A stretch of DNA of 11,583 bases from Helicobacteraceae bacterium. Lineage in GTDB: Bacteria; Campylobacterota; Campylobacteria; Campylobacterales; Sulfurimonadaceae. This document shows, in pieces, positions 56 through 11,583 of the stretch. The stretch is taken from NCBI GenBank assembly GCA_015489055.1, contig WFMO01000017.1, positions 1 to 11,583 of the forward strand. The letters run 5' to 3'. The notes below the pieces were generated by a model that ran no database searches, had not been told where the DNA came from, and saw only the letters and a program-made list of their open reading frames with translations. Made by a program: the position numbers and the translations under genes. Position 1 is the stretch's first letter. Every line of letters begins with the position of its first letter.

Positions 56-562
56 CTATATTTTTTTTAAAAACTTTAATAATTCTTTAATAATTTCATC
101 CGGCTGTGGTGGACAACCTGGTATATGGTGAGTGACTTCAATGTGATCTTGCACAGGAGCCATAATGGCATATGTTTTTTCAAAAACACTTTGCATAAGT
201 GGACAGTCGCCTAAAGTTACAATCCATTTTGGAGAAGGGACCTGCTCTTTGACTTCTAGAAGATGATGATACATATTGGAAGTTAAAACACCGCTTACAA
301 GCAGTATATCCGCATGTCTTGGACTTGCTACAAAATATATACCAAGACCTTCAAGATTATAGTAAGGGTTTGAGAGTGCATTACATTCTGCTTCACAGGC
401 GTTACAACTACCACTATCTACCATCCTGATAGCCAAAGAGCCGGCGAATTTTTTATTTACAAGAGTTTTTATCTCTTTTTTTGTATTATCAAGCTTATCG
501 TTCGTTTTTATTTTTTCTGTTAGTATGCCCGTTTGCATCCGTTTTCGTATAAAATTAATCAT
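56..562 (-). CDS. hyfI: HyfI/NuoB-like small subunit of an Ehr-type (hydrogenase-4-like) complex
   Basis: A 168-residue soluble protein of the NuoB / [NiFe]-hydrogenase small-subunit family. In this family it holds the proximal [4Fe-4S] cluster next to the active-site cavity of the large subunit, on the cytoplasmic side of the membrane arm. All four cluster ligands are visible: C53 and C56 in GSCNACE, C120 in LGDCP, and C150 in the family motif PGCPP (148-152). Residues 1-40 are a polar, lysine-rich extension ahead of the conserved core. The start codon overlaps the stop of the hyfG-like gene by 4 bases (ATGA), so the two are probably translationally coupled; it is the last gene of the operon. 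The electron-transfer cluster is intact although the partner large subunit has lost its metal ligands, so electrons presumably still pass through this subunit. The family is clear; the name is by homology and the complex is probably not a true hydrogenase. Confidence 0.92.
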   Translation of the reverse strand: MINFIRKRMQTGILTEKIKTNDKLDNTKKEIKTLVNKKFAGSLAIRMVDSGSCNACEAECNALSNPYYNLEGLGIYFVASPRHADILLVSGVLTSNMYHHLLEVKEQVPSPKWIVTLGDCPLMQSVFEKTYAIMAPVQDHIEVTHHIPGCPPQPDEIIKELLKFLKKI

Positions 563-1932
563 AAATCATTTCCTGCATAACTTAAGTCACAACTTTTATT
601 GATAAGAGGGAAATCCGCTATGATATCTTTAAGCATCATAGCGTGGATGACTTGCCAATTTACATGGCTTGGATCTCTTACAAAAAATCTATCAATCAAA
701 CCGCCATTAACATCAACGCTCATAAACAGCTCTCCAATAGAGCTTTCAACGAAAGTTTGATATGAGCCGTTATTAAACTTCTCCGGCATCTCTACATGTA
801 AAGGTTTGATATCTTGTAACAGACTTTTCATCATCTCTATAGAGTTATAAATCTCCATAATACGAAGCAAAAATCTAGCTGCCACATCGCCGCTTGTTTG
901 CAGCATTGTTTTAAAGCCGTGTTGTTTATAAAAATCATTATCACGACGATCAAGAGCAACACCGCTGGCTCTTGCCATGACTCCTACAGAGTCATATTTA
1001 ACGGCCTTAGTATGCGTGAGTATCCCTGTAGTATCAAATCTATCCCATAAAGATGGTACTCCTTTTATCCATTTCTCAAACCATTTTATCTCTTTGTGAA
1101 GCTCATCTAAAAAGTTTAAAAACTCTTGATGATCAAAATTTGGTATTTTAAAACTAACAGCATCAAATCCAAATCTATGACCTGTTAATTGTTTAAATAT
1201 CCGCCTGCTGTCTTCGGCTAATTTTGAGGCAAAAGAGAGTGCTGCGCTAAAGCCTGCATCATTTGGGATAAACCCGATATCTGATACATGGTGGATAAGT
1301 CGTTCAAATTCCAATAAAAGAGCATGATATGATTTTATCTCTACGGGTAGAGCAGTCTTTGATGCTTGAGATATTATATCCATGTAGGCTGTTTGGTATG
1401 CAACGGATTCGTTACCGCTAATGCGTCCCACTATAGCTCTTGCATCCAAAAGAGATTTATTTTGTACCATTTTTTCGATCCCGCGATGAGTATAAAAATG
1501 TCTGATATCAAGATGTAGCATCCGCTCTCCGTCTTGAGAGAATTGAAAATGTCCAGGTTCTATAATGCCTGCATGTATAGGTCCAACAGCGACTTCAAAA
1601 ACCCCATCACCCCCAACGGTCTTATATTTATATGGTTTAAAATTGGTAAATTCTATCGTTTTTGCGGTAAAGTTTTTTTGCAAAGGGTGTATATCTTGTG
1701 GAAATCGTTCGTGATGAAGTAGTGGGCGAGTATCAAAACTGTTTGCAAATACAATACCAAAATCATCAAAGATTTTTCGCTCATACCAAAGCGCAGATGG
1801 ATATTGATGAGCTATGCTTGAAGCTGTCGAAGCATTTTTATCAATAGTCTCCTTTTGTGTTTTTGTATCAAAAACGGTAACAATCTCAAAAGAATTCCCA
1901 ATATCTTTTGCAAATTTAGCAATAAGTCTCAT
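559..1932 (-). CDS. hyfG: HyfG/NuoCD-like large subunit without [NiFe]-binding cysteines (Ehr-type)
   Basis: A 457-residue fusion of a short NuoC-like domain (about 1-85, with the signature P45-SALWYERKIFDDFGI) and a NuoD / group 4 hydrogenase large-subunit domain (about 105-457; GPIHAGIIEPGHF at 117-129, HRGIEKM at 149-155). E. coli HyfG is roughly 100 residues longer; the NuoC part is shortened here. In catalytic relatives, two CxxC motifs bind Ni and Fe. Here the first, normally RICGIC, reads RISGNE (170-175) and the second, normally DPCxxC, reads DPSHVN (420-425), so all four ligands are replaced (S172, E175, S422, N425). C448 is the only cysteine in the protein. The N-E-x-x-A-Y string at 174-179 recalls the NNE-AY segment of complex I NuoD. 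The C-terminus (IIADFPLINKS then LSYAGNDL) is intact, so this is not a truncation. It overlaps both neighbours by 4 bases. Hydrogenase activity is very unlikely; the real substrate site is unknown, and an Ehr complex is the best fit. Confidence 0.93.
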   Translation of the reverse strand: MRLIAKFAKDIGNSFEIVTVFDTKTQKETIDKNASTASSIAHQYPSALWYERKIFDDFGIVFANSFDTRPLLHHERFPQDIHPLQKNFTAKTIEFTNFKPYKYKTVGGDGVFEVAVGPIHAGIIEPGHFQFSQDGERMLHLDIRHFYTHRGIEKMVQNKSLLDARAIVGRISGNESVAYQTAYMDIISQASKTALPVEIKSYHALLLEFERLIHHVSDIGFIPNDAGFSAALSFASKLAEDSRRIFKQLTGHRFGFDAVSFKIPNFDHQEFLNFLDELHKEIKWFEKWIKGVPSLWDRFDTTGILTHTKAVKYDSVGVMARASGVALDRRDNDFYKQHGFKTMLQTSGDVAARFLLRIMEIYNSIEMMKSLLQDIKPLHVEMPEKFNNGSYQTFVESSIGELFMSVDVNGGLIDRFFVRDPSHVNWQVIHAMMLKDIIADFPLINKSCDLSYAGNDL

Positions 1933-3344
1933 GATATACTCCTTAGATATTGCATAGACTGTGGAAGTAAAAGTAGTGCCAATGAAACAGCAAGTATGAC
2001 AAGAGCGATTATTTCACTGCTATATACCTTTTTCTCCTCCTGGGTGCCACCATATTTCATAGATTGATATATAGCCGTAAAACGGTAAAATATAATTGAT
2101 AATAAAATCAGCAAAAACGCGATAGCTGCGATCATAGCCAGCATATGGTGTGTGTGTTTTGCCATATTTATCATAGCTCCAAAACCATATATTTCAGAAA
2201 AAAACATGGGACTAGGAGGCACTGATACGATAGCCAGTAAAAATAATCCCACGATGAACCAGAAGATTTTTCCTTTAATGCCTTTATATCCTCTTAATGC
2301 GCCTGCTATGTGATATTTGCCTTTTGATTCGAGCACTCCCGTTGAGAGAAATAGTGAAGGTTTTAAAAATGCATGAGCGCCAAAATGCAGAAGTGCCGCA
2401 AACGTTCCACCGCTAACCCAAAACAAAGCAATAAGTGCCATATGCTCAATGCCAGAAAAGCTAAACAAGCGAATAAAATCTTTAGCTCTGTAGATTAAAA
2501 ACGCAACAATAAAGATTGTTAAAAAAGAGTAGATAAACACAAAGCCAAAGAGCTGTGTAAAGTCTATCTGCATAACGATTTTGCTAAATCTGAAAAAACC
2601 TATCATAACCGCACTCTCTAGTATTCCGCTAAAAAGGGCGGGTACGGGGTAAAATGAAGCTCGCTCGATATCTGCTAGCCAAAGATTCATGGGAAACATA
2701 CCAAGTTTTATAAACATACCCACGGTTGTAATGGCAAATCCGATTTCAAACAAAAATGGCATTTTTATCTCTTTTATATGTGCTAATAGTGCGTTAAAAT
2801 TCATGGCATTATCACCTAAGAGCGGTTTTGCGCTTGCGTAAATAAGTATAATCCCAAATAAAATAATAGATATAGCGATAGTATCTACGATCATATAGTT
2901 CCATGCTTCCTTGTGTGCCGTGCTTGTATAGTTTATCTTTATCATATATACAGTTGAGAGTGTTGCAAACTCAAGTCCTACCCAGTATATGCCCATGTTA
3001 TTTGAAAGCGTTGAGAGTATCAGACCAAGCCAAAAAAGGGCAAAAAATCTATAAAAACGGTTATATGCCCTTTTTTTAATATTTACATGTTTATGTAAAG
3101 TCATAAGTGCCAGCGACACTCCAATGCTCACAACTGATGAGACTAAAAATACATAATCACCGAGTTTATCAACTATAAGATAATTTCCTACAAGATGATA
3201 CGGATAAGGCAGTTTAAATAGCATAATATTTGGTATTATGATTGTAAACGATATAAGAGGCAAAAGATTTGCGATCTTATCTGTTTTGACAAAGCTCACT
3301 ATAAACATCAAAATGGCAGGTAACAGTAAAAAGAAAATAATCAT
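1929..3344 (-). CDS. hyfF: HyfF/NuoN-like antiporter-type membrane subunit
   Basis: A 471-residue, strongly hydrophobic protein with about a dozen or more membrane segments, of the proton-translocating antiporter-like family (NuoL/M/N, HyfF, Mrp). Features recognised: a membrane glutamate in WVGLEFATLS (E125), the lysine of KLGMFPMNLWL (K213), the GIEHMALI segment (298-305), HFGAHAFLKPSLFLS (H320, H324, K328) and PPSPMFFSE (376-384). These charged residues sit where this family carries its proton path. The stretch FSGILESA (238-245) has a glutamate (E243) where HyfB/NuoM relatives usually have a lysine, and the region near 220-230 lacks the usual FHxWLPDAH. It is divergent but complete. The start overlaps the stop of the hyfE-like gene and the stop overlaps the start of the hyfG-like gene, each by 4 bases. 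Role in ion pumping is inferred from the family. Confidence 0.88.
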   Translation of the reverse strand: MIIFFLLLPAILMFIVSFVKTDKIANLLPLISFTIIIPNIMLFKLPYPYHLVGNYLIVDKLGDYVFLVSSVVSIGVSLALMTLHKHVNIKKRAYNRFYRFFALFWLGLILSTLSNNMGIYWVGLEFATLSTVYMIKINYTSTAHKEAWNYMIVDTIAISIILFGIILIYASAKPLLGDNAMNFNALLAHIKEIKMPFLFEIGFAITTVGMFIKLGMFPMNLWLADIERASFYPVPALFSGILESAVMIGFFRFSKIVMQIDFTQLFGFVFIYSFLTIFIVAFLIYRAKDFIRLFSFSGIEHMALIALFWVSGGTFAALLHFGAHAFLKPSLFLSTGVLESKGKYHIAGALRGYKGIKGKIFWFIVGLFLLAIVSVPPSPMFFSEIYGFGAMINMAKHTHHMLAMIAAIAFLLILLSIIFYRFTAIYQSMKYGGTQEEKKVYSSEIIALVILAVSLALLLLPQSMQYLRSIS

Positions 3345-3934
3345 GCCTTAACTCCCGTATCTTTAAAAAGAAGATTAATGATAACAATTGCCATCAATAT
3401 ATCAAAAAATACTCCCAGCTCCACGAGCATGGGCATACCGTTTGTGGCCGTAATCCCAAGTAGAAACAGCGCATTGTCAAGAGTTAGAAATCCAATGATT
3501 TTAGGTGCTACATGATTATGCTCCATCATCAAGATAAGCGTTAAAAACAGAGATGAGATGCTAATAGAGATATCGTTTGGATTTGCTTGGAGCATATGAC
3601 TTATCGGTTCAGCGATAAAAAATGTAAAAACCAAAATAGCCGGTATTAATATAACTGAATAATGCACCTTTATATTTGGCGTTATTTGCCTTTGAAGATG
3701 AAATTTATTGCTTAAATATTTTAGTACATACGGTATGATTAGTGCTTTTAACACCAGTGTTATCACACCGCTTACAATAAGAGCGTTATCATGCACTTTT
3801 ATGCCGATAAAAACGGCTAAAAGCCCAAGCATAAGTGAATTTACAAAATACCAAAATATCAAGCGGTAAAGTCTTGCCGTAAAGATTGATATAATGAGCG
3901 TAGCTAAAAATAAACCGATTAAAAAATTATCCAT
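3341..3934 (-). CDS. hyfE: HyfE-like (extended NuoK-type) membrane subunit
   Basis: A 197-residue hydrophobic protein matching HyfE, an enlarged relative of the small complex I subunit NuoK (E. coli HyfE is slightly longer). Two family landmarks are visible: VLKALIIPYVLKY at 61-73, with K63, and the C-terminal GMPMLVELGVFFDIL at 166-180, with E172, a membrane carboxylate of the kind that helps couple electron flow to ion movement. At 152-155 the protein has LDNA where I would expect an ENG-like sequence. About six to seven membrane segments are predictable by eye. The gene starts 4 bases after the hyfC-like stop and overlaps the hyfF-like start by 4 bases, so it is in the middle of the operon. 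As a membrane linker between the HyfC-like anchor and the HyfF-like antiporter subunit, its role is inferred from complex I. Confidence 0.85.
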   Translation of the reverse strand: MDNFLIGLFLATLIISIFTARLYRLIFWYFVNSLMLGLLAVFIGIKVHDNALIVSGVITLVLKALIIPYVLKYLSNKFHLQRQITPNIKVHYSVILIPAILVFTFFIAEPISHMLQANPNDISISISSLFLTLILMMEHNHVAPKIIGFLTLDNALFLLGITATNGMPMLVELGVFFDILMAIVIINLLFKDTGVKA

Positions 3935-3938
3935 AATA

Positions 3939-4859
3939 CTAGGCTCCCAGCACGTAAAATGTTATTAAAGATAAAAAAGCAAAAACTATCGAGATACCCA
4001 GAAGGTTTGGCACCTTAAAGAGTCTTAGTTTGGCAGTGCCTATCTCAAGCAAAGCGATAGCTATGCAGATAATGAGCAGCTTCGCTATAAAAATAACAAG
4101 TGCGACAGGTATGCTAAATTGTAATCCAAAAGGCATAAAAAGTGATGCAAACAAAGAGGCAAAAATGATAAATTTTATAGATGATGCCATCTCGACAATA
4201 GCTAAATATACTCCCGTAATATCTAAAATCATCGCTTCATGAATCATGGTCACTTCCAGGTGGGTCTGAGGATTATCAACGGGAATTCTACCGTTTTCAG
4301 CTATTAAAAGAATAAAAAAACTAATAGCGGAGAATAAAAAGCTTGCCATATGTTTTTGAGGAAATGATGATGCCAGATTAACGCCTGCTTGACCGATTCC
4401 AAGATTGCCCGCCATCATAGAAACACTAAATACGGTTAGTATCATAGCCGGCTCAACAAGCGCAGAAATAAACGCTTCGCGACTTGAGCCCATGCCGCCA
4501 AAACTACTGGCGCTATCTAGTCCTAAGAGCATCAAAAAGAAAGTGGATAAAGATATTAGCCCTGTTATCGTAAACGCATCAACAAAGCTAACATAATACG
4601 CACCTTTAACAATAGGTGGTAACAAAAAAAGTACGATAAGCAAAGGAGATAGTATTAAAAATGGAGCCACTCTCGTAACGGCACTTGTTTCTTCGCTAAT
4701 TATCGTCTCTTTACTCATAAGTTTTGAAAAATTTCTATATCCTTGGAAGATAGATATAGGCTTTTTAAACGTTATAAACATCTTTATCTGTGTAATAAAA
4801 CTAAGCAACAATGGTGAGATTACGATAAGTAATATGATTGTAGATAAATAAAGTATCAT
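3939..4859 (-). CDS. hyfC: HyfC/NuoH-like membrane anchor subunit
   Basis: A 306-residue membrane protein of the NuoH/HyfC/HycD family, the subunit that docks the soluble module and, in complex I, forms the quinone-entry chamber. The most diagnostic stretch is at 188-208: E188, then RIPVDNPQTHLE (191-202) followed by H207-E208. An early cytoplasmic loop has the family pattern FQGYRNFSKLMSKE (38-51), and GGMGSSREAFIS (121-132) is the counterpart of the NuoH GGSRS-type loop. The length is normal for HyfC. Start: the ATG at 4859 overlaps the hyfB-like stop (ATGA) and is preceded by a good ribosome binding site, AGGAG on the minus strand at 4867-4871. Whether it still forms a quinone site cannot be told from the sequence; with the hydrogenase centre lost, an electron acceptor near this subunit is a reasonable guess. 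Confidence 0.92.
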   Translation of the reverse strand: MILYLSTIILLIVISPLLLSFITQIKMFITFKKPISIFQGYRNFSKLMSKETIISEETSAVTRVAPFLILSPLLIVLFLLPPIVKGAYYVSFVDAFTITGLISLSTFFLMLLGLDSASSFGGMGSSREAFISALVEPAMILTVFSVSMMAGNLGIGQAGVNLASSFPQKHMASFLFSAISFFILLIAENGRIPVDNPQTHLEVTMIHEAMILDITGVYLAIVEMASSIKFIIFASLFASLFMPFGLQFSIPVALVIFIAKLLIICIAIALLEIGTAKLRLFKVPNLLGISIVFAFLSLITFYVLGA

Positions 4860-6757
4860 TTTTTATCTCCTATGACAAGGATTTTTATTGTTATTATCAT
4901 AACAACCGTCTCTATGGCAAAAGTTGCCCAGCTAAACTGATGTGAAAAGATTCTGTAGCTAAATAAAACCATTAAAAGAAGATTGAATATGATAGCAACA
5001 TAACGACGTTGCTCAAAATGTGCAAAACGGTACACCCAATAACTGGTTATATTTGTAAGCCTTACAAGACTCGTATAAAGAGAGACCTCAAATAAAGGTT
5101 TTACATGTACGGCGTAATGTGATGAGGTAAATATTGTATTGTGTCCTTTAACCTTTTCTGTATTTAAATGTTCTTGCGGTTTATACAACCATGTAAAAAA
5201 TCTTCGGATTGGTCCCGCAAATCCTGTGGATGAATATTGTGTTCTTGATGAAGTTCTATATCCGCATGCCCATGTTTTATAGATACGTTCTTTTACATGT
5301 AAAGCTTTGTAAGCAAATATCAATAAAAATGTAATGCCCAAAAGTGCTATAAGTAAAATAAGGGGCGATACTACTCCGCCATTTATGCCTACTGAGTGCA
5401 TCTGCCATATACCATGTGGAAAGATTTTGTGATATACATCGGCTTTACCTAAAGAGACGAGCGTATTGCTAAAATAATGTATGTAAATAGGCGCTAGAAG
5501 CATTAGCGATATAACAACTAGTGCCATAAGTATCATGCCTATTTTCATAAGTGAATTTACTTCTGTCGCATGTTTTGCATTAGTGCTTCTATGCAATCCT
5601 AAAAAGGTGATGCCGTAAGCTTTGACAAAACATGCTATTGCCAGACCGCCTGTTAATGCAAGAGCAAAGATAGCAAAAGGGATTGTCAATTTTAATGTCA
5701 TGATATTTATATGGCTAGAGCTAAGCAGGGATTGAAATATCATCCATTCGCTTAAAAATCCGTTAGACGGAGGCAGGGCTGAGATGGATATGGCTGCTAT
5801 TAAAAATGTAATAGCCGTAATTGGCATAGTTTTAATCAGTCCGCCGTATTTTTCCATATTTTTTGTATTTGTTTGGTGCAATACGCTTCCCGCTCCCATA
5901 AATAAAAGTGATTTAAAGCTCATATGATTAAAGATATGAAACAAAGCGGCTATAAACGCAAAGGCACTAAGTAACGGCAGATGCAGAGTATCAAATATCA
6001 TACCCATCCCAAAAGCAATAAGTATAATACCTATATTTTCTATCGAGTGGTTTGCCAGCAGAGCCTTTATGTCATGTTCACTTAAAGCATATAAAACGCC
6101 GACAAGCGATGAGATAGCGCCGATGATTAAAATAACAACGCCCCACTGCAATGGCCATGGGTAGAGAATATCAAATAAAAATCTAAACAAGCCATAAAGC
6201 GCGATTTTAAGCATAACTCCACTCATAAGCGCTGAAACAGGGCTAGGGGCTTGTGGATGTGCATATGGCAGCCATACATGTAATGGTACCGCTCCGGCTT
6301 TACTTAAAAGCCCGAAGATTAAAAAGAAAAATAGTAGAGTTGGATATGCAAAATGAGAGGCTATAGCTTTTAATGCACTAAAACTTTGATTTATATCTCC
6401 ATTGCTTATAATTAGAAAAAATAATAATAAACAAACAAATCCAAGGTGAGTCATAAAAAAATAAAACCTAGCAGCAAAAAGATTTTCTTTATCTTTAGGT
6501 TCTGTTAGGATTAATTGCCAGCTTGTTAAGCTCATAAGCTCCCAAAAAAATAAAAACACTAAAGCATTAGCTGATATTACAACACCAATCATAGATAAAA
6601 TAAATCCAAAGTAGTGAATTAGATAATGAGTTTTTCTTTTAATATGCGGTAAATATCCAAAAGAATAAAACAAATTAGGTACAATGCCAAGCAATATAAG
6701 AACTGTAAAAACAGCCGAAAGTGTATCAAATAAAAACATAATTATGTATAGCTCCAC
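4856..6757 (-). CDS. hyfB: HyfB/NuoL-like antiporter-type membrane subunit, short N-terminus
   Basis: A 633-residue polytopic protein, first gene of the operon. Family marks in order: E73 in FFWELMSLTSW; K153-AGAVPLHVWLPYAHPQAP with H159 and H167; LMSGVMLK (177-184); LYALSEHDIKALLA (222-234); FNHMSFKSLLFMGAG (276-290) with H278 and K282; ALPPSNGFLSEW (327-338); and a C-terminal soluble stretch with TWACGY (495-500). These lysines, histidines and glutamates form the proton path of NuoL/Mrp-type subunits. Compared with E. coli HyfB, the motif DTLSAVF (11-17) lies about 65 residues too early, so the first one or two membrane helices are missing. The start is uncertain: GTG at 6757 has no ribosome binding site, while ATG at 6739 has GGAG (6752-6755) 12 bases before it. 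The reading frame stays open upstream to 6846 but offers no ATG, GTG or TTG. Confidence 0.9.
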   Translation of the reverse strand: MELYIIMFLFDTLSAVFTVLILLGIVPNLFYSFGYLPHIKRKTHYLIHYFGFILSMIGVVISANALVFLFFWELMSLTSWQLILTEPKDKENLFAARFYFFMTHLGFVCLLLFFLIISNGDINQSFSALKAIASHFAYPTLLFFFLIFGLLSKAGAVPLHVWLPYAHPQAPSPVSALMSGVMLKIALYGLFRFLFDILYPWPLQWGVVILIIGAISSLVGVLYALSEHDIKALLANHSIENIGIILIAFGMGMIFDTLHLPLLSAFAFIAALFHIFNHMSFKSLLFMGAGSVLHQTNTKNMEKYGGLIKTMPITAITFLIAAISISALPPSNGFLSEWMIFQSLLSSSHINIMTLKLTIPFAIFALALTGGLAIACFVKAYGITFLGLHRSTNAKHATEVNSLMKIGMILMALVVISLMLLAPIYIHYFSNTLVSLGKADVYHKIFPHGIWQMHSVGINGGVVSPLILLIALLGITFLLIFAYKALHVKERIYKTWACGYRTSSRTQYSSTGFAGPIRRFFTWLYKPQEHLNTEKVKGHNTIFTSSHYAVHVKPLFEVSLYTSLVRLTNITSYWVYRFAHFEQRRYVAIIFNLLLMVLFSYRIFSHQFSWATFAIETVVMIITIKILVIGDKK

Positions 6758-6910: not shown

Positions 6911-8071
6911 ATGAATAAAAGTTATTTTTTATCACAACCGCATCAGCCATTTTTTTTATTGGGCTTGATTAATGCAATAGTCGCGGTGCTTATGTTTGCA
7001 TTAGGATATACTGGACATATTAGTTTGAATATTGATGAAGTTACGTTTCATGTTTATTCTCTTGTTTTTTTGGTTTTCACCAATTTGTTTATAGGTTTTT
7101 TATTCACGACATTTCCTAGATTCAATCAAACAGATGTAGTACAGAAAAATTATTATACTAATCTTTTTTATTTCAATACAATTGGTTCAGTTTTCTTTTT
7201 CATAGCATCGTTATTATCGCATTTTTGGATTGTTATTGCTATGTTGTTTATTTTTACGTCACAACTGTTGTTTGTACGGAAGCTGCAAAATATATATAAT
7301 AGTTCCGCAGTAGTAGATAAAACTGATTCATTTTGGATTTTGATGGCAAATTATTTTGGACTTTTTGCCAATGTTTTATTTGTATTTAGTGTTATATATT
7401 TTTCTTCTTTACAGCAAAGCGCGATCAGCATAGCATTTTATCTTTATCTTATTTTAGTGGCCGTTAGTGTAGCTCAAAGAATGGTACCGTTTTTTTCCAA
7501 TTCTATGATAAAAAAGAATTATTTATTTATGAAAATAATTCTTTTTTCGTTTATTGTTTTGGTTGTTACAGATGTTACAAATTTTACAATAGGCAGCATA
7601 GCGGTAGATCTCTTTTTGGCTTTTTATATGTTTCGCGAGATTTTAAGATGGAAGCTACACCCTTTTAATTCACCGGCAATTGTATGGATTTTACATTTAG
7701 CTGTATTTTGGCTCCCTGTCGCATTTTTATTTTCTGCTATTAGCCTAATAGCAGCTATGATGATGCATACAACATTTTATTTTTTAGGTATTCATCTGTT
7801 GGCATTGGGGTTTTTAACAACTTTGTTGATTGGTTTTGCAACGCGAGTAACGCTAGGTCATTCAAATCAGATACCTCATGCAGACAAGATAACTGTGTAT
7901 ATATTTTATTTCACACAGGTTGTAGTGCTTTTTCGAGCGTTGTATAGCGTAAATATATCATTTGGATGGGGTCTTGGTTTTTTATTTGATTTGGCTGTTA
8001 TTGCATGGATACTGATGATTCTAGTTTGGAGTATTAAATATGTCCGTTTTATTCTTTTTAAAAATATATAG
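6911..8071 (+). CDS. nnrS: NnrS family membrane protein
   Basis: A 386-residue protein of about twelve hydrophobic segments that matches the NnrS family, heme- and copper-containing membrane proteins tied to nitric oxide metabolism and nitrosative-stress tolerance. Visible marks: an N-terminal H11-QPFFLLG, resembling the HPFRPFFL start of the family; GFLFTTFPRF (62-71), like the usual GFLLTAVPNW; RMVPFF (190-195); and the signature ATRVTLGH (310-317), following H295-LLALGFLTT. Other histidines near membrane segments (H47, H250, H262, H286) are candidates for metal or heme binding. The usual HEM triplet after the first histidine pair is replaced by HVYS (47-50). It is a single gene with its own promoter and an FNR/Nnr-type operator directly upstream, which fits the known control of nnrS by nitrogen-oxide-sensing regulators. 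No nitric oxide or nitrite reductase gene is in the window. Family assignment is firm; the exact biochemical role is not settled for the family. Confidence 0.85.
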   Translation: MNKSYFLSQPHQPFFLLGLINAIVAVLMFALGYTGHISLNIDEVTFHVYSLVFLVFTNLFIGFLFTTFPRFNQTDVVQKNYYTNLFYFNTIGSVFFFIASLLSHFWIVIAMLFIFTSQLLFVRKLQNIYNSSAVVDKTDSFWILMANYFGLFANVLFVFSVIYFSSLQQSAISIAFYLYLILVAVSVAQRMVPFFSNSMIKKNYLFMKIILFSFIVLVVTDVTNFTIGSIAVDLFLAFYMFREILRWKLHPFNSPAIVWILHLAVFWLPVAFLFSAISLIAAMMMHTTFYFLGIHLLALGFLTTLLIGFATRVTLGHSNQIPHADKITVYIFYFTQVVVLFRALYSVNISFGWGLGFLFDLAVIAWILMILVWSIKYVRFILFKNI

Positions 8072-8164: not shown

Positions 8165-9877
8165 TTGAGCATACCGATTTATACTTATGATGCAATTATT
8201 GTCGGAGCCGGATTGGCGGGCAATGCAGCAGCTAGAGAGCTGAAAAATGAAGGTAAAAATGTTGCCGTAATAACCAAACTTCATCCGCTTCGTTCACACT
8301 CAGGCGCGGCACAAGGTGGGATTAACGCGGCACTTAGCAGTGCAGACAGTATAGAACTGCATGAGTTTGATACCGTAAAAGGATCTGATTATCTAGCAGA
8401 TCAAGATGCTGTTGAATTTATGTGCCAAAAGGCACCTGAGACGGTTAGATGGGCAGAGAGAATGGGAGCGACATTTAGTAGAAAAGAAGATGGTCAGATA
8501 GCCCAGCGTCCATTTGGAGGACAGTCTTCTCCGCGTGCATGTTACGCCAAAGACAGGATTGGGCTAACGCTTTTACAAACTATTTATGAGCAAGCTTTTA
8601 GACTCGGAGTCAAGTTTTTAGATGAGTGGTATGCAACGGATTTAATATACAAAGACGGTAAAGTATCGGGCATAGTGGCTTTTCATCTACGCGATACCCA
8701 AATAGCAATTTTTAATGCCAAATCGGTTATGTTTGCAACAGGCGGATATGCTCGTGCATTTAAGATAAGTTCAAATGCTCATGCCAACACCGGTGATGGT
8801 TTATCGATTGTCGCCAGGCATGGTTTGCCTCTTGAGGACATGGAGTTTGTACAATTTCATCCATCGGGATTATCCGGAAACGGTGTTTTGATTTCTGAGG
8901 CAGCAAGAGGAGAGGGCGGTAAACTCTTTAACTCTAAAGGAGAGCGTTTTATGGAGAGATATGCTCCTAATGCGCTGGAGCTTGCCAGTCGTGATGTTGT
9001 TAGTCGTGCTATCGTGAATGAGATTCGCGAAGGGCGCGGGGTTGGTCCTAGAAAAGATGCCGTATATCTTGATGTTACACATCTTGGCAAAGACTTGATT
9101 ATGCAGAGACTTCCTGAATTACGTGATCTTGCTATCACATTTTTAGGACTTGATATGATAAAAGAGCCAATCTTGATCTCAGCAACCGCACACTATTCTA
9201 TGGGCGGTATTCCGGTAGATATTCCTGGACATGTTCGTAAAAATAATACTGAATTTGTTGAAGGATTTTATGCAGCAGGTGAGTGCTCGTGTGTGTCAGT
9301 ACACGGCGCAAATCGTTTAGGTGCAAATTCTGTTTTAGAGGCACTTTTATTTGGTAGATTTGTGGGTAAGACCATGGCAAGTGAGATAGATGATATTGCA
9401 CTGCGTCCGGCTACTGAGGATGATGCTAAAAGAGCTATTGATGAGATTAACTGGATTCTTAACAATAACGGAGATGAAAGAGTTGCACAGTTAAGAGAAG
9501 AGTTACAAGATACGATGACAGACCATGCAGGCGCTTTTAGAACAGAGGAATCCTTACAAGTAGCGGTAGATAAAATCAAAGAATTAAGACAAAGACATAA
9601 AAATATTCGCGTAGATGATAAATCAAAAGTTTTTAATACGGAATTACAAGAGGCTCTTGAATTTGGGCATATGCTTGATTATGCTAAATTTATAGTAGAG
9701 AGCGCTATCGCTAGGAAAGAGAGCAGAGGAGCGCATTTTAGGGAAGATTTTGACAAGCGTGATGATGTAAACTTTTTGAAGCACACAATGGGATATATGG
9801 ATACAAGCGGAGATATAAAGCTTGACTATATGGATGTCACTCTTGGTAAACATGAACTTAAAGAAAGAACTTATTAA
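8165..9877 (+). CDS. frdA: Fumarate reductase/succinate dehydrogenase flavoprotein subunit
   Basis: A 570-residue FAD protein that interconverts succinate and fumarate. The dinucleotide-binding motif is GAGLAG (14-19). H45 in [10 protein letters not shown] is the histidine that carries covalent FAD in this family. Catalytic-site residues are present: H232 in [14 protein letters not shown] (244-252), R281 in [10 protein letters not shown]343 in TAHYSMGG and R384 in GANRLGANS. The C-terminal helical domain (about 420-570) is complete. The protein starts with [14 protein letters not shown] and has no twin-arginine signal, so it acts in the cytoplasm; this separates it from the periplasmic MfrA (methylmenaquinol:fumarate reductase) of Wolinella and Campylobacter. 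It starts with TTG and is followed after 11 bases by frdB. The direction of the reaction cannot be read from sequence. With the CCG-domain third subunit the enzyme is of type E; a role in a reverse or normal TCA cycle is inferred. Confidence 0.95.
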
Positions 9878-9888
9878 AGGAAGAAAAT

Positions 9889-10872
9889 ATGAGTAGAGAA
9901 ACTGTAACTACGCAAGAAGTCAAATTTAATGTATTTCGCTTTAATGCTGATGATGATTATCTTCCATACTATAAAGAATATACTCTTGAAGTAACTTCAG
10001 AAGATGTAGTGCTTGATATTTTAAATAAGATTAAGTGGGAGCATGACGGGAGTTTTTCGTATAGACGAAGTTGTCGTCACGGTATTTGCGGTGCTTGTGC
10101 TATGAAAGTAAACGGTCGAGCAACATTAGCCTGTAAAGAGCGTATGGTAGATATGATTGAGCTATTTGGCAATGAAATGACGTTAGAGCCTTTAAGTGTT
10201 AAGCGGGCTGTTAAAGATCTTATTATTGATAAGTCAGATTTTTGGGAAAAACATGCGAAAATAGATCCTTATCTAGTTGACAAGATTGATGAAACGCCTG
10301 AGCATGAGAATTTAGTTTCCCAAGCTGATATGGATAAGCTCCTTGACGCAGACGTTTGTATCCAGTGTGGGGCATGTCATTATGCATGCCCGGCAGTTGC
10401 TATCAATGAAGAATTTATCGGGCCTGCTGCTTTTGCGGCTGCTTATCGTTTTGAGATTGATGCGCGTGACCAGTCTAACAATGCAAGGCTTGAAATTGTA
10501 GATCAGGAAAAACAGGGTGTATGGGATTGTGTAAAATGTTTTGAATGTCAGGAAGCTTGTCCAAAAGATATTAATCCAATAGAGAAGATTACAAAACTTC
10601 ACAATATGATTTTTAAAGAAGGTATGGCAAATAATGATGTGGCAGCTAGGCACGCAGTCGGGTTTGAGCGTTCAATCAAAAAACACGGTATCTTAGATGA
10701 GGGTGAATTAGTTAGATATAGTGAAGGAAATATAGGTGTTTTAAAACATGTGCCCGTTGCACTTAAGATGTTTACAAAAGGTAAAATAGTTTTACCATGG
10801 AAGATGCCAAAAGCTGATAAGCTTGATGAAATTAAAAAACTTGTTGAGTCATCATCAACTGTAAAATATTAG
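9889..10872 (+). CDS. frdB: Fumarate reductase/succinate dehydrogenase iron-sulfur subunit
   Basis: A 327-residue iron-sulfur protein, longer than E. coli FrdB/SdhB (about 240 residues) because of a C-terminal extension after about residue 240. The N-terminal ferredoxin domain has C62, C67, C70 and C82 for the [2Fe-2S] cluster. The second domain has CIQCGACHYACP (C157, C160, C163, C167) and CVKCFECQEACP (C214, C217, C220, C224). In the usual enzyme, C167, C214 and C220 hold a [3Fe-4S] cluster; here the extra C217 sits at the place of V207 in E. coli FrdB, whose change to cysteine gives a [4Fe-4S] cluster. Type E enzymes are known for such a cysteine, so a [4Fe-4S] third cluster is expected. 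AAGGAAG ahead of the ATG is the ribosome binding site. It passes electrons from FAD to the CCG subunit encoded 10 bases downstream. Confidence 0.95.
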   Translation: MSRETVTTQEVKFNVFRFNADDDYLPYYKEYTLEVTSEDVVLDILNKIKWEHDGSFSYRRSCRHGICGACAMKVNGRATLACKERMVDMIELFGNEMTLEPLSVKRAVKDLIIDKSDFWEKHAKIDPYLVDKIDETPEHENLVSQADMDKLLDADVCIQCGACHYACPAVAINEEFIGPAAFAAAYRFEIDARDQSNNARLEIVDQEKQGVWDCVKCFECQEACPKDINPIEKITKLHNMIFKEGMANNDVAARHAVGFERSIKKHGILDEGELVRYSEGNIGVLKHVPVALKMFTKGKIVLPWKMPKADKLDEIKKLVESSSTVKY

Positions 10873-10882
10873 GAGTTAAAAT

Positions 10883-11583
10883 ATGGCAGAGAAATTAAAA
10901 TATGCACTTTTTACAGGATGCACGGCAAAAGAGAGTACTCCTGAGCAGATGATGTCAACAATGGCAGTTGCAGATAAACTAGGTATAGAGCTTATAGAAT
11001 TAACCGAAGCTTCATGTTGCGGTGCTTCACATTTGCAAGATTATGATGATTTTTTGTCATTAGTTCTTAATGCTCGCAATATCGCCTATGCTGAAAAACA
11101 TGGTTTAACTATGGTGACAATATGTAATACATGTCAGCTAAATTCTGCTATGACAAAACATAGATTAGATAACAATGCAGAATTAAAAGCCAAAGTAAAT
11201 GCGAAATTGGCAGAAGTCGGCCTTGAGTATAAAGGTACATCGCAAGTCACTCACTTTTTATATGCCATTATCGATGATTTTGGTTTGGATAAAATCAAAG
11301 AGATGGTCGTAAAACCTCTTAGTCAGTTTAACATTGCTCCTTTTTACGGATGTCATAATATTCGCCCGTCAGAATTACAAAATGAATCTCACAAGACAGC
11401 AGAAAATCCATATAATCCTACATCACTGGATGATCTCATCATTGCATGTGGAGGTCATAATGTTGATTATAATGAAAAAAATAAATGCTGTGGCTTTCAT
11501 GCTGAGCTTCAAGCACCACACACTGCAGCGGTTTTAACAGGAAATGCGGTTGCTGGTGCTATGGATAATAATGCTGATTGGAT
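10883..11583 (+). CDS. CCG-domain (HdrB/SdhE-type) third subunit of fumarate reductase, partial
   Basis: An open frame from ATG 10883, 10 bases after frdB and with AGGAG at 10871-10875, running off the window end after 233 codons; relatives are about 290 residues, so most of it is present. It belongs to the cysteine-rich CCG family shared with heterodisulfide reductase subunit B and with SdhE/MfrE of type E succinate dehydrogenases. The first CCG motif is complete: C13, C45-C46, then C81 and C84. The second is started by C157 and C202-C203, with the final CxxC expected beyond the end. No membrane-spanning heme-b segments are seen, so it takes the place of the usual cytochrome b anchor, probably as a peripheral membrane subunit that reacts with the quinone pool. 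Names in use include SdhE, FrdE, SdhC and MfrE, so I give no symbol. A methanogen-type heterodisulfide reductase is ruled out by the neighbours. Confidence 0.9.
   Translation, partial: MAEKLKYALFTGCTAKESTPEQMMSTMAVADKLGIELIELTEASCCGASHLQDYDDFLSLVLNARNIAYAEKHGLTMVTICNTCQLNSAMTKHRLDNNAELKAKVNAKLAEVGLEYKGTSQVTHFLYAIIDDFGLDKIKEMVVKPLSQFNIAPFYGCHNIRPSELQNESHKTAENPYNPTSLDDLIIACGGHNVDYNEKNKCCGFHAELQAPHTAAVLTGNAVAGAMDNNADW

What the first reader, a model, noticed from the sequence alone, without database searches (positions are those of the whole stretch)
559..1932. Hydrogenase-4-like large subunit with all four [NiFe] cysteines replaced
Seen: RISGNE (170-175) in place of RICGIC, DPSHVN (420-425) in place of DPCxxC, and only one cysteine (C448) in 457 residues, while the rest of the fold signatures and the C-terminus are intact. 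Known: energy-converting-hydrogenase-related (Ehr) complexes lack these ligands and have no assigned reaction in most organisms. Inference: this is a membrane ion-pumping redox complex that does not use H2, with an unknown substrate or quinone site, possibly closer to complex I in its NE-x-x-AY segment. Automatic annotation as formate hydrogenlyase or hydrogenase-4 would be wrong.
Basis: partly seen in the sequence, partly recalled or inferred. Interest (0 to 1): 0.75.

Follow-up and report, generated by a model that had tools for sequence, protein, structure and literature searches.

The report
Hydrogenase-like pump lacking nickel site
This bacterium carries a six-part membrane machine that looks like a hydrogen-making enzyme but has lost the metal site that makes hydrogen, and relatives carry it without the genes needed to build such a site, so it probably does another, still unknown, energy-saving reaction.

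Summary
HyfG (559-1932, minus) has RISGNE at 170-175 and one cysteine, but DPSHVN is not the second ligand motif: alignments put hydrogenase DPCYSC on D449-LSYAG454, so the four ligands become S172, E175, S451 and G454. The protein ends where HycE is cut during nickel maturation. It belongs to a six-gene operon (hyfBCEFGI) of the known but unexplained Ehr kind. In the tree all Ehr form one clade beside Hyc/Hyf; the window sits in a Campylobacterota subclade ("Ehr1", my label). Seven of 29 Ehr1 genomes, including a one-contig genome and the window's 99%-complete sister MAG, have no HypD, HypC or [NiFe] large subunit over cut-off, so a nickel site is very unlikely there. Ehr1 also lost the canopy Arg/Lys seen in 35 of 37 other tree rows and gained Glu175; Ehr rows share Lys446 and, where sampled, a His pair in the NuoH-like subunit. 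Cluster and pump residues persist. Best reading: an ion-pumping redox complex, probably on quinone, fed by a soluble donor; substrate unproven. Papers reading this operon as hydrogen-evolving are probably wrong. New variant of a known kind.

The parts
559..1932 (-). hyfG-like (EhrL-type) large subunit, 457 aa; NuoC-like N-terminus fused to NuoD/HycE-like part
1408..1425 (-). RISGNE, residues 170-175; S172 and E175 stand at the first two nickel-ligand positions (HycE C241, C244)
   Evidence: S172 in 120 of 120 and E175 in 118 of 120 listed homologues
571..588 (-). DLSYAG, residues 449-454; S451 and G454 stand at the last two nickel-ligand positions (HycE C531, C534)
   Evidence: S451 and G454 in 240 of 240 Ehr rows; the Paraburkholderia Ehr, outside those 240, has Asn at 451
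658..675 (-).
   Evidence: faces AATYAN of HycE
736..738 (-). Ile399 in place of the canopy Arg/Lys (HycE R478)
   Evidence: I/L/M in 120 of 120 Ehr1, R in 120 of 120 Ehr2; in the tree rows R in 14 of 14 other Ehr, 7 of 7 Hyc/Hyf, 5 of 5 Ech-type, K or R in 9 of 11 Nuo (N in 2), I or L in 10 of 10 Ehr1
595..597 (-). Lys446, Ehr-specific residue next to the former ligand motif
   Evidence: K in 240 of 240 Ehr rows; G in E. coli HycE, HyfG and NuoCD
1258..1260 (-). Asp225, shared with most complex I rows, absent from Hyc/Hyf and Ech-type rows
   Evidence: D in 240 of 240 Ehr rows; D in 8 of 11 Nuo rows, 0 of 7 Hyc/Hyf, 0 of 5 Ech-type
56..562 (-). hyfI-like (NuoB-like) small subunit, 168 aa; C53, C56, C120, C150 = proximal [4Fe-4S] ligands by homology
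   Evidence: PF01058; the four Cys invariant in 19 of 19 Ehr
1929..3344 (-). hyfF-like antiporter-type membrane subunit, 471 aa
   Evidence: PF00361; E125 and K213 at pump positions in 18 of 19 Ehr each
3341..3934 (-). hyfE-like membrane subunit, 197 aa
   Evidence: NF008556 below its cut-off; alignment
3939..4859 (-). hyfC-like (NuoH-like) membrane subunit, 306 aa
   Evidence: PF00146
4236..4265 (-). THLEVTMIHE, residues 199-208 of HyfC: 3-residue insertion with His200 and His207 in the loop that is AEAEQEL in E. coli HycD and HyfC and PEAEQEL in NuoH
   Evidence: H200, E202, H207, E208 invariant in 19 of 19 Ehr, absent from E. coli HycD, HyfC, NuoH; motif THLExTxxHE in 120 of 120 listed HyfC homologues, the closest relatives only
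4856..6757 (-). hyfB-like (NuoL-like) antiporter-type membrane subunit, 633 aa, GTG start
   Evidence: PF00361; K231, H278, K282 invariant, E337 in place of NuoL K399, in 18 of 18 Ehr

Best explanation
[quoted passage not shown] Shown here: the four [NiFe] ligands are missing in every Ehr row examined, the proximal cluster ligands and most pump residues are kept, and the operon lives in some genomes in which no nickel-site maturation genes were found. Inferred: a soluble low-potential donor (ferredoxin, flavodoxin or a dehydrogenase) docks directly on HyfI, because no HycF/NuoI-type wiring subunit is encoded in the operon; one [4Fe-4S] cluster passes electrons to a substrate in the emptied nickel cavity; the movement of charge there (Glu125, Asp225, Asp449, Glu175, Lys446) is passed through the His-bearing loop of HyfC to HyfB, HyfE and HyfF, which pump protons or sodium ions. 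By elimination (no metal ligands, no flavin domain, a cluster with all its ligands) a quinone is the most likely substrate. The direction could be reversed, with ion gradient and quinol making low-potential electrons, for example for the reductive citric acid cycle (its presence in the hosts is recalled, not tested).
For: Ligands absent and replacement residues conserved. Ehr clade 100/100, outside Hyc/Hyf. No HypD in 7 of 29 Ehr1 genomes, no PF00374 match over cut-off in the same 7, no HypC in the same 7 against 4 of 4 controls with it. Cluster cysteines invariant in 19 of 19. Pump residues kept in nearly all rows. HyfI of two Ehr2 loci carries a fused domain with two four-cysteine cluster motifs, which suggests that electrons enter on the HyfI side in a relative. 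HyfI keeps the CxxC spacing of hydrogenases, so the open cluster site of MBS is not expected (PMC7684303 passages). A canonical-type NuoD is present as well in the sister MAG G307 (it falls among the Nuo rows), so Ehr is probably an extra complex, not a replacement.
Against: The residues that hold the quinone head in complex I are missing: Nqo4 His38 is Ile124 and Tyr87 is Gly173 here (alignment, columns; their role is recalled). The canopy Arg/Lys that 9 of 11 Nuo rows keep is gone in Ehr1. No donor gene is conserved beside the operon in the 23 loci viewed, three genes to each side where the contig allowed. Nothing here measures electron transfer or pumping. HyfC could not be modelled (pLDDT 43), so no tunnel to the membrane could be looked for.
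Confidence: 0.45

Rival explanations
1. Published view: a hydrogenase-4 / formate hydrogenlyase-2 that makes H2 from formate, or an H2-evolving Hyc for acid resistance.
For: Stated for the operon hyfBCEFGI of vent Epsilonproteobacteria in passages of PMC3958643 and for a vent Hyc in PMC4584964; Ehr proteins of Geobacter were more abundant on formate than in hydrogen-containing conditions (passages of PMC7894505).
Against: All four ligands absent. Seven of 29 Ehr1 genomes have no HypD and no [NiFe] large subunit over cut-off. The only two of 51 genomes with an Fdh-alpha match over cut-off, G061 and G224, carry those genes (each with one in-frame TGA) within 7 kb of a hycE that has both RVCGIC and DPCYSC, far from Ehr. 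The Fdh-alpha family matched 51 of 51 genomes at E 0.001, including the 20 without Ehr, so co-occurrence says nothing.
Confidence: 0.02
2. A sulfane-sulfur (polysulfide) reductase that works like MBS of Pyrococcus, with reduction at the proximal cluster.
For: MBS is a complex I relative that also lost nickel chemistry; many hosts are sulfur-metabolising (recalled).
Against: In MBS the cluster motif is three residues shorter, leaving one iron without a cysteine; HyfI keeps hydrogenase spacing and all four ligands in 19 of 19 Ehr. Ehr also occurs on plasmids of Rhizobium and Rhodococcus.
Confidence: 0.12
3. A formate dehydrogenase-fed version: FDH passes electrons to Ehr, which reduces quinone and pumps ions.
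For: An FDH-Ehr complex was hypothesised for lineages next to Cyanobacteria (passages of PMC6349859); Ehr rose on formate in Geobacter.
Against: None of the Fdh-alpha matches listed (the list is cut) lies inside the Ehr1 neighbourhoods fetched; the nearest listed ones in the one-contig genomes G221 and G264 are about 30 and 33 kb from hyfG. No FDH gene is listed within 12 kb of the four annotated plasmid operons, whose gene tables are incomplete.
Confidence: 0.15
4. A redox-silent ion or solute transporter: the membrane arm acts as an Mrp-like antiporter and HyfG/HyfI only assemble or gate it.
For: No wiring subunit in the operon and no conserved partner in Ehr1; ligand and canopy residues lost.
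Against: The four cluster cysteines are invariant in 19 of 19 Ehr and the emptied pocket is itself conserved in 240 of 240 rows at several positions, which a silent scaffold would not need.
Confidence: 0.12

Closest known systems
Ehr, energy-converting (Ech) hydrogenase-related complexes (Geobacter sulfurreducens GSU0739-45; comammox Nitrospira; Margulisbacteria)
   Same: Large subunit without the nickel ligands in Nitrospira and Margulisbacteria, HyfE-like and NuoL-like membrane subunits in Geobacter, no established reaction (passages of PMC10284858, PMC6349859, PMC7894505). Relatives from Desulfuromonas and Geoalkalibacter form one clade with the window; the named Geobacter, Nitrospira and Margulisbacteria proteins themselves were not in the tree
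   Different: The Campylobacterota clade (Ehr1) has Glu175 for Thr/Ser, mostly His214 for Asn, Asp449 for Asn and no canopy Arg, and no ferredoxin-like domain on HyfI, which the two Ehr2 HyfI proteins seen here have
Hydrogenase-3/-4 (FHL-1, FHL-2) of Escherichia coli
   Same: Same relative order of B, C, E, F, G, I genes as E. coli hyf; best sequence and structure match HycE
   Different: No nickel ligands, no assembly peptide, no HyfA, HyfD, HyfH or HyfJ in the window
Respiratory complex I (NuoB/C/D/H/L/M/N)
   Same: Shared fold and Asp225; no nickel ligands
   Different: CxxC instead of tandem CC at the cluster, Ile124 and Gly173 instead of the quinone His and Tyr, Glu125 kept as in hydrogenases, no NuoE, F, G or I in the operon
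MBS, sulfane reductase of Pyrococcus furiosus (6u8y)
   Same: Complex I relative that lost nickel chemistry
   Different: MBS keeps two of the four cysteines and has an open cluster site; here none is kept and the cluster ligands are complete

Membership tests
Ehr complex | large subunit of the group 4 [NiFe]/complex I kind without the nickel ligands | tested here: met
Ehr complex | phylogenetic grouping with other ligand-less (Ehr-type) large subunits, outside hydrogenases and NuoD | tested here: met
   24 Ehr rows 100/100; holding Ehr1 with Hyc/Hyf is rejected, p-AU 0.0006, a group chosen after the first tree was seen. The proteins for which the name Ehr was coined were not in the tree
Ehr complex | antiporter-like membrane subunits and NuoH-, HyfE-like subunits | tested here: met
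Ehr complex | couples a cytoplasmic redox reaction to ion transport | not testable with these tools
   suspected in PMC6349859, not measured
Group 4 [NiFe] hydrogenase (Hyc/Hyf) | four cysteine ligands of the [NiFe] site | tested here: not met
Group 4 [NiFe] hydrogenase (Hyc/Hyf) | C-terminal assembly peptide after the last ligand (Hyc/Hyf type) | tested here: not met
   0 residues beyond position 457 in 240 of 240 Ehr rows; 32-35 in 7 of 7 Hyc/Hyf rows; Ech-type rows have none either
Group 4 [NiFe] hydrogenase (Hyc/Hyf) | Hyp maturation genes in the genome | tested here: not met
   HypD absent in 7 of 29 Ehr1 genomes, among them G000 (only 83% complete) and the sister MAG G307 (99%); present in the other 22, all of which have a [NiFe] large subunit over cut-off
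Respiratory complex I | tandem CC at the N2 cluster and quinone His/Tyr in NuoD | tested here: not met
MBS sulfane reductase | shortened cluster loop leaving one iron without Cys | tested here: not met
   (same loop length as E. coli HycG and HyfI) against passages

The most novel reading that the evidence does not exclude
Ehr1 is a one-cluster, wireless ion pump with a pocket chemistry of its own: after nickel was lost, the Campylobacterota line also gave up the canopy Arg/Lys that the hydrogenase, other Ehr and nearly all complex I rows keep, and built a Glu175-Asp225-Asp449-Lys446 site that turns over a substrate which is neither H2 nor a quinone bound in the complex I manner. It would be a further branch of the superfamily beside H2, sulfane sulfur and quinone chemistry.
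Probability: 0.2. Interest if true: 0.82.

Novelty: new variant of a known kind. Interest (0 to 1): 0.52.

Why it matters
Ehr complexes were described in Geobacter about 2004 (Coppi et al., as cited in PMC7894505) and the papers seen here still give them no established reaction. Three results make the question more directly testable: natural genomes that hold Ehr but in which no HypD, HypC or [NiFe] large subunit was found, a list of pocket residues that separate Ehr from hydrogenase and from complex I, and an Ehr-specific His pair in the coupling loop of the NuoH-like subunit. It also bears on vent ecology: hyf or hyc genes of vent Campylobacterota have been read as hydrogen production or as acid resistance (passages of PMC3958643, PMC4584964, PMC2628731, PMC10696704), and those readings need revision wherever they rest on this operon.

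Tried and rejected
Rejected: DPSHVN as the ligand motif. The NE-x-x-AY likeness to complex I (five positions out of register). Sequencing error. MBS-like open cluster. FHL-2. Co-occurrence with formate dehydrogenase as evidence: the family matches 51 of 51 genomes, so the test has no power. HycI as a marker: no genome of 51 passes the cut-off; 10 of the 29 Ehr1 genomes have no match at E 0.001, while 19 of 29 have matches below the cut-off, which I take for proteases of other hydrogenases, so this is weak support only.

Led nowhere: a structure model of HyfC (mean pLDDT 43). The HyfG model is good overall (84.8) but its pocket loops 113-127 and 447-457 are under 50, so the pocket geometry was not used. 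A first tree held wrongly cut NuoD rows and was replaced. Regex motif counts missed variants and were replaced by column counts. A search for Ehr with Sulfurimonas gave 0 papers; in the listings of searches I saw no paper that assigns Ehr to Campylobacterota. Search 88, for hydrogenases of Sulfurovum lithotrophicum, was not followed up. The 2013 paper that treated Ehr widely (Marreiros, recalled) was not read, so earlier recognition there is possible.

Full report
What is there. The window is a whole contig (C17) of a genome of 1.41 Mb in 280 contigs, 83% complete. Its nearest named relative, 95% identical in HyfG, is on a contig titled Helicobacteraceae bacterium M1_metabat2_scaf2bin.069; the held genome G307 has a contig of the same length with the same genes, so I take it to be that MAG. 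The minus strand carries six genes, hyfB, hyfC, hyfE, hyfF, hyfG and hyfI; four of the five junctions are 4-base overlaps and one is a 4-base gap. No gene for HyfA, HyfD, HyfH or HyfJ is in the window. On the plus strand follow an NnrS-like protein and a succinate dehydrogenase or fumarate reductase of the type with an HdrB-like anchor.

A conserved site, not a decayed one. I looked at 120 listed relatives of the window protein and 120 of a Sulfurospirillum Ehr; each list is the best 120 of thousands and includes the query's own cluster. Columns E125, D225, N445, K446, S451, Y452, G454 and D456 are the same in 240 of 240 rows. Some of these (E125, Y452, D456) are shared with E. coli HycE; N445, K446, S451 and G454 are not, nor are they in HyfG or NuoCD. 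Outside the 240, the Paraburkholderia Ehr has Asn at 451. D225 faces Asp139 of Thermus Nqo4, an acid of the quinone site (role recalled), and is missing in 7 of 7 Hyc/Hyf and 5 of 5 Ech-type rows; among 11 Nuo rows 8 have it.

Two Ehr lines. The Campylobacterota line, which I call Ehr1, differs from the rest in coupled positions: N174-E175 (118 of 120 each) against D174 with T, S or A at 175, H214 (118 of 120) against N214 (119 of 120), D449 against N449 (120 of 120 each), and position 399 Ile, Leu or Met in 120 of 120 against Arg in 120 of 120. Exceptions exist in the smaller row sets: L037 has K174-D175, and it and one or two other Ehr1 rows have N214. Position 399 is HycE R478, the canopy arginine, which passages of the FHL structure paper PMC9474812 describe as Arg or more often Lys in complex I, where changing it or the canopy Asp to a non-protonatable residue substantially impairs quinone reductase activity. 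In the tree rows it is Arg in 14 of 14 other Ehr, 7 of 7 Hyc/Hyf and 5 of 5 Ech-type, Lys or Arg in 9 of 11 Nuo (Asn in two), and Ile or Leu in 10 of 10 Ehr1. So Ehr1 gave up a residue that nearly all the other branches sampled keep.

Tree. With 47 rows (Ehr1 10, Ehr2 8, plasmid Ehr 6, Hyc/Hyf 7, Ech-type 5, Nuo 11) all Ehr form one clade (100/100), sister to Hyc/Hyf (94/92), and Ehr1 is a clade (100/100). Loss of the ligands within Ehr is therefore best seen as one old event. Against a neat picture: the Ech-type rows are not one clade, the plasmid Ehr rows are not one clade, and no MBH, MBS or Fpo rows were available.

Genomes without nickel maturation. Of 397 phylum genomes 32 have a match at E 1e-45; 30 of these are of the Ehr1 type (one partial), two have only the second type. 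I gave 29 of the 30 Ehr1 genomes (G086, partial, left out) and the two others to further searches. HypD is missing in 7 of the 29: G000, G307, G096, G219, G221, G238 and G388. The same 7 have no [NiFe] large-subunit match over cut-off; four of them have a single match below cut-off, which in G221 adjoins NuoD. HypC is missing in the same 7 and present in 4 of 4 controls. G221 is one contig and labelled 100% complete; G307 is labelled 99%; G000, the window's own genome, is only 83% complete, so its absences weigh little alone. In such genomes a [NiFe] site cannot be made by the known route, so the operon probably serves another reaction. The other 22 genomes have HypD and also a [NiFe] large subunit over cut-off, so their Hyp genes say nothing about Ehr.

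Where the real formate hydrogenlyase genes are. Of 51 genomes searched for Fdh-alpha, two have matches over the cut-off, G061 and G224. Both lie within 7 kb of a hycE with RVCGIC and DPCYSC and a C-terminal extension, and far from the Ehr1 operon of the same genome.

Electron path and pump. HyfI keeps four cluster cysteines in 19 of 19 Ehr, with hydrogenase spacing. A further cysteine, C60, is present in 21 of 22 Ehr1 HyfI proteins (the remaining one lacked the pattern searched for). In two Sulfurospirillum-type loci HyfI has an added N-terminal domain with two four-cysteine motifs. The four annotated plasmid operons, of Paraburkholderia, Rhodococcus, Rhizobium and Bradyrhizobium, have the same six genes (hyfI comes first in Rhodococcus) and no such domain. 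HyfB and HyfF keep charged residues at pump positions in nearly all rows. HyfC has a three-residue insertion with two invariant His in the loop that in E. coli HycD, HyfC and NuoH carries AEAEQEL or PEAEQEL (19 of 19 Ehr); the motif is in 120 of 120 listed homologues of the window HyfC, which are close relatives. Among nine other loci scanned by pattern it is in both Ehr loci and in none of the four Hyc or Ech-type loci where a NuoH-like loop was found.

Neighbours. At 23 Ehr1 loci, three genes to each side where the contig allowed, I saw no partner shared beyond close relatives, as a 2014 pan-genome paper had said of its vent species (passage). In the sister MAG two multihaem cytochromes follow hyfI by 59 bases.

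Literature. I read passages only. PMC3958643 calls hyfBCEFGI a putative hydrogenase-4 and proposes FHL-2. PMC4584964 lists a Group IV Hyc in S. autotrophica clustering with other vent species and links it to acid resistance by H2 evolution. PMC2628731 counts hyc of Nautilia profundicola among operons for H2-evolving hydrogenases. That these are the same operon follows for the first from its gene list and is my inference for the other two. Ehr elsewhere is said to lack the ligands and to have no known function or a role never investigated. In the listings and passages from searches I saw no paper in which the Campylobacterota operon is named Ehr; the library lacks most subscription journals.

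Verdict. Not a hydrogenase: about 0.97. Ion-pumping redox complex: about 0.75. The full reading with quinone as the substrate: about 0.45, by elimination, and against the missing quinone His and Tyr.

Noticed in passing
L110:967-2604, L111:7970-9613, L112:9042-10697 (genomes G307, G264, G040): A second Nuo-like gene set, with no E, F or G seen in the stretch, whose NuoCD-like subunit has Cys at the first and third nickel-ligand positions (window numbering 172 and 451), reminiscent of the two cysteines kept in MBS.
   Followed up: partly
L113:1379-4455 (sister MAG), beyond the window's low end: Two proteins with 12 and 8 CxxCH motifs follow hyfI by 59 bases on the same strand; the window's contig ends before them.
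   Followed up: partly
L033 and L036: Two hyfB-like genes in tandem at the head of the operon in two genomes of the window's family, G009 and G129.
   Followed up: no
L114:5233-19901 (G331): An Ehr1 operon and a second Ehr operon with canopy Arg lie next to each other; the Ehr1-type hyfI lies beyond the second operon.
   Followed up: partly
L035:9249-16668: hyfI is separated from hyfG by seven other ORFs, among them two short proteins with CxxCH motifs and a response regulator-like protein.
   Followed up: no
window 8165-11581, plus strand: Succinate dehydrogenase or fumarate reductase with an HdrB-like SdhE anchor, next to an NnrS-like protein at 6911-8071.
   Followed up: no
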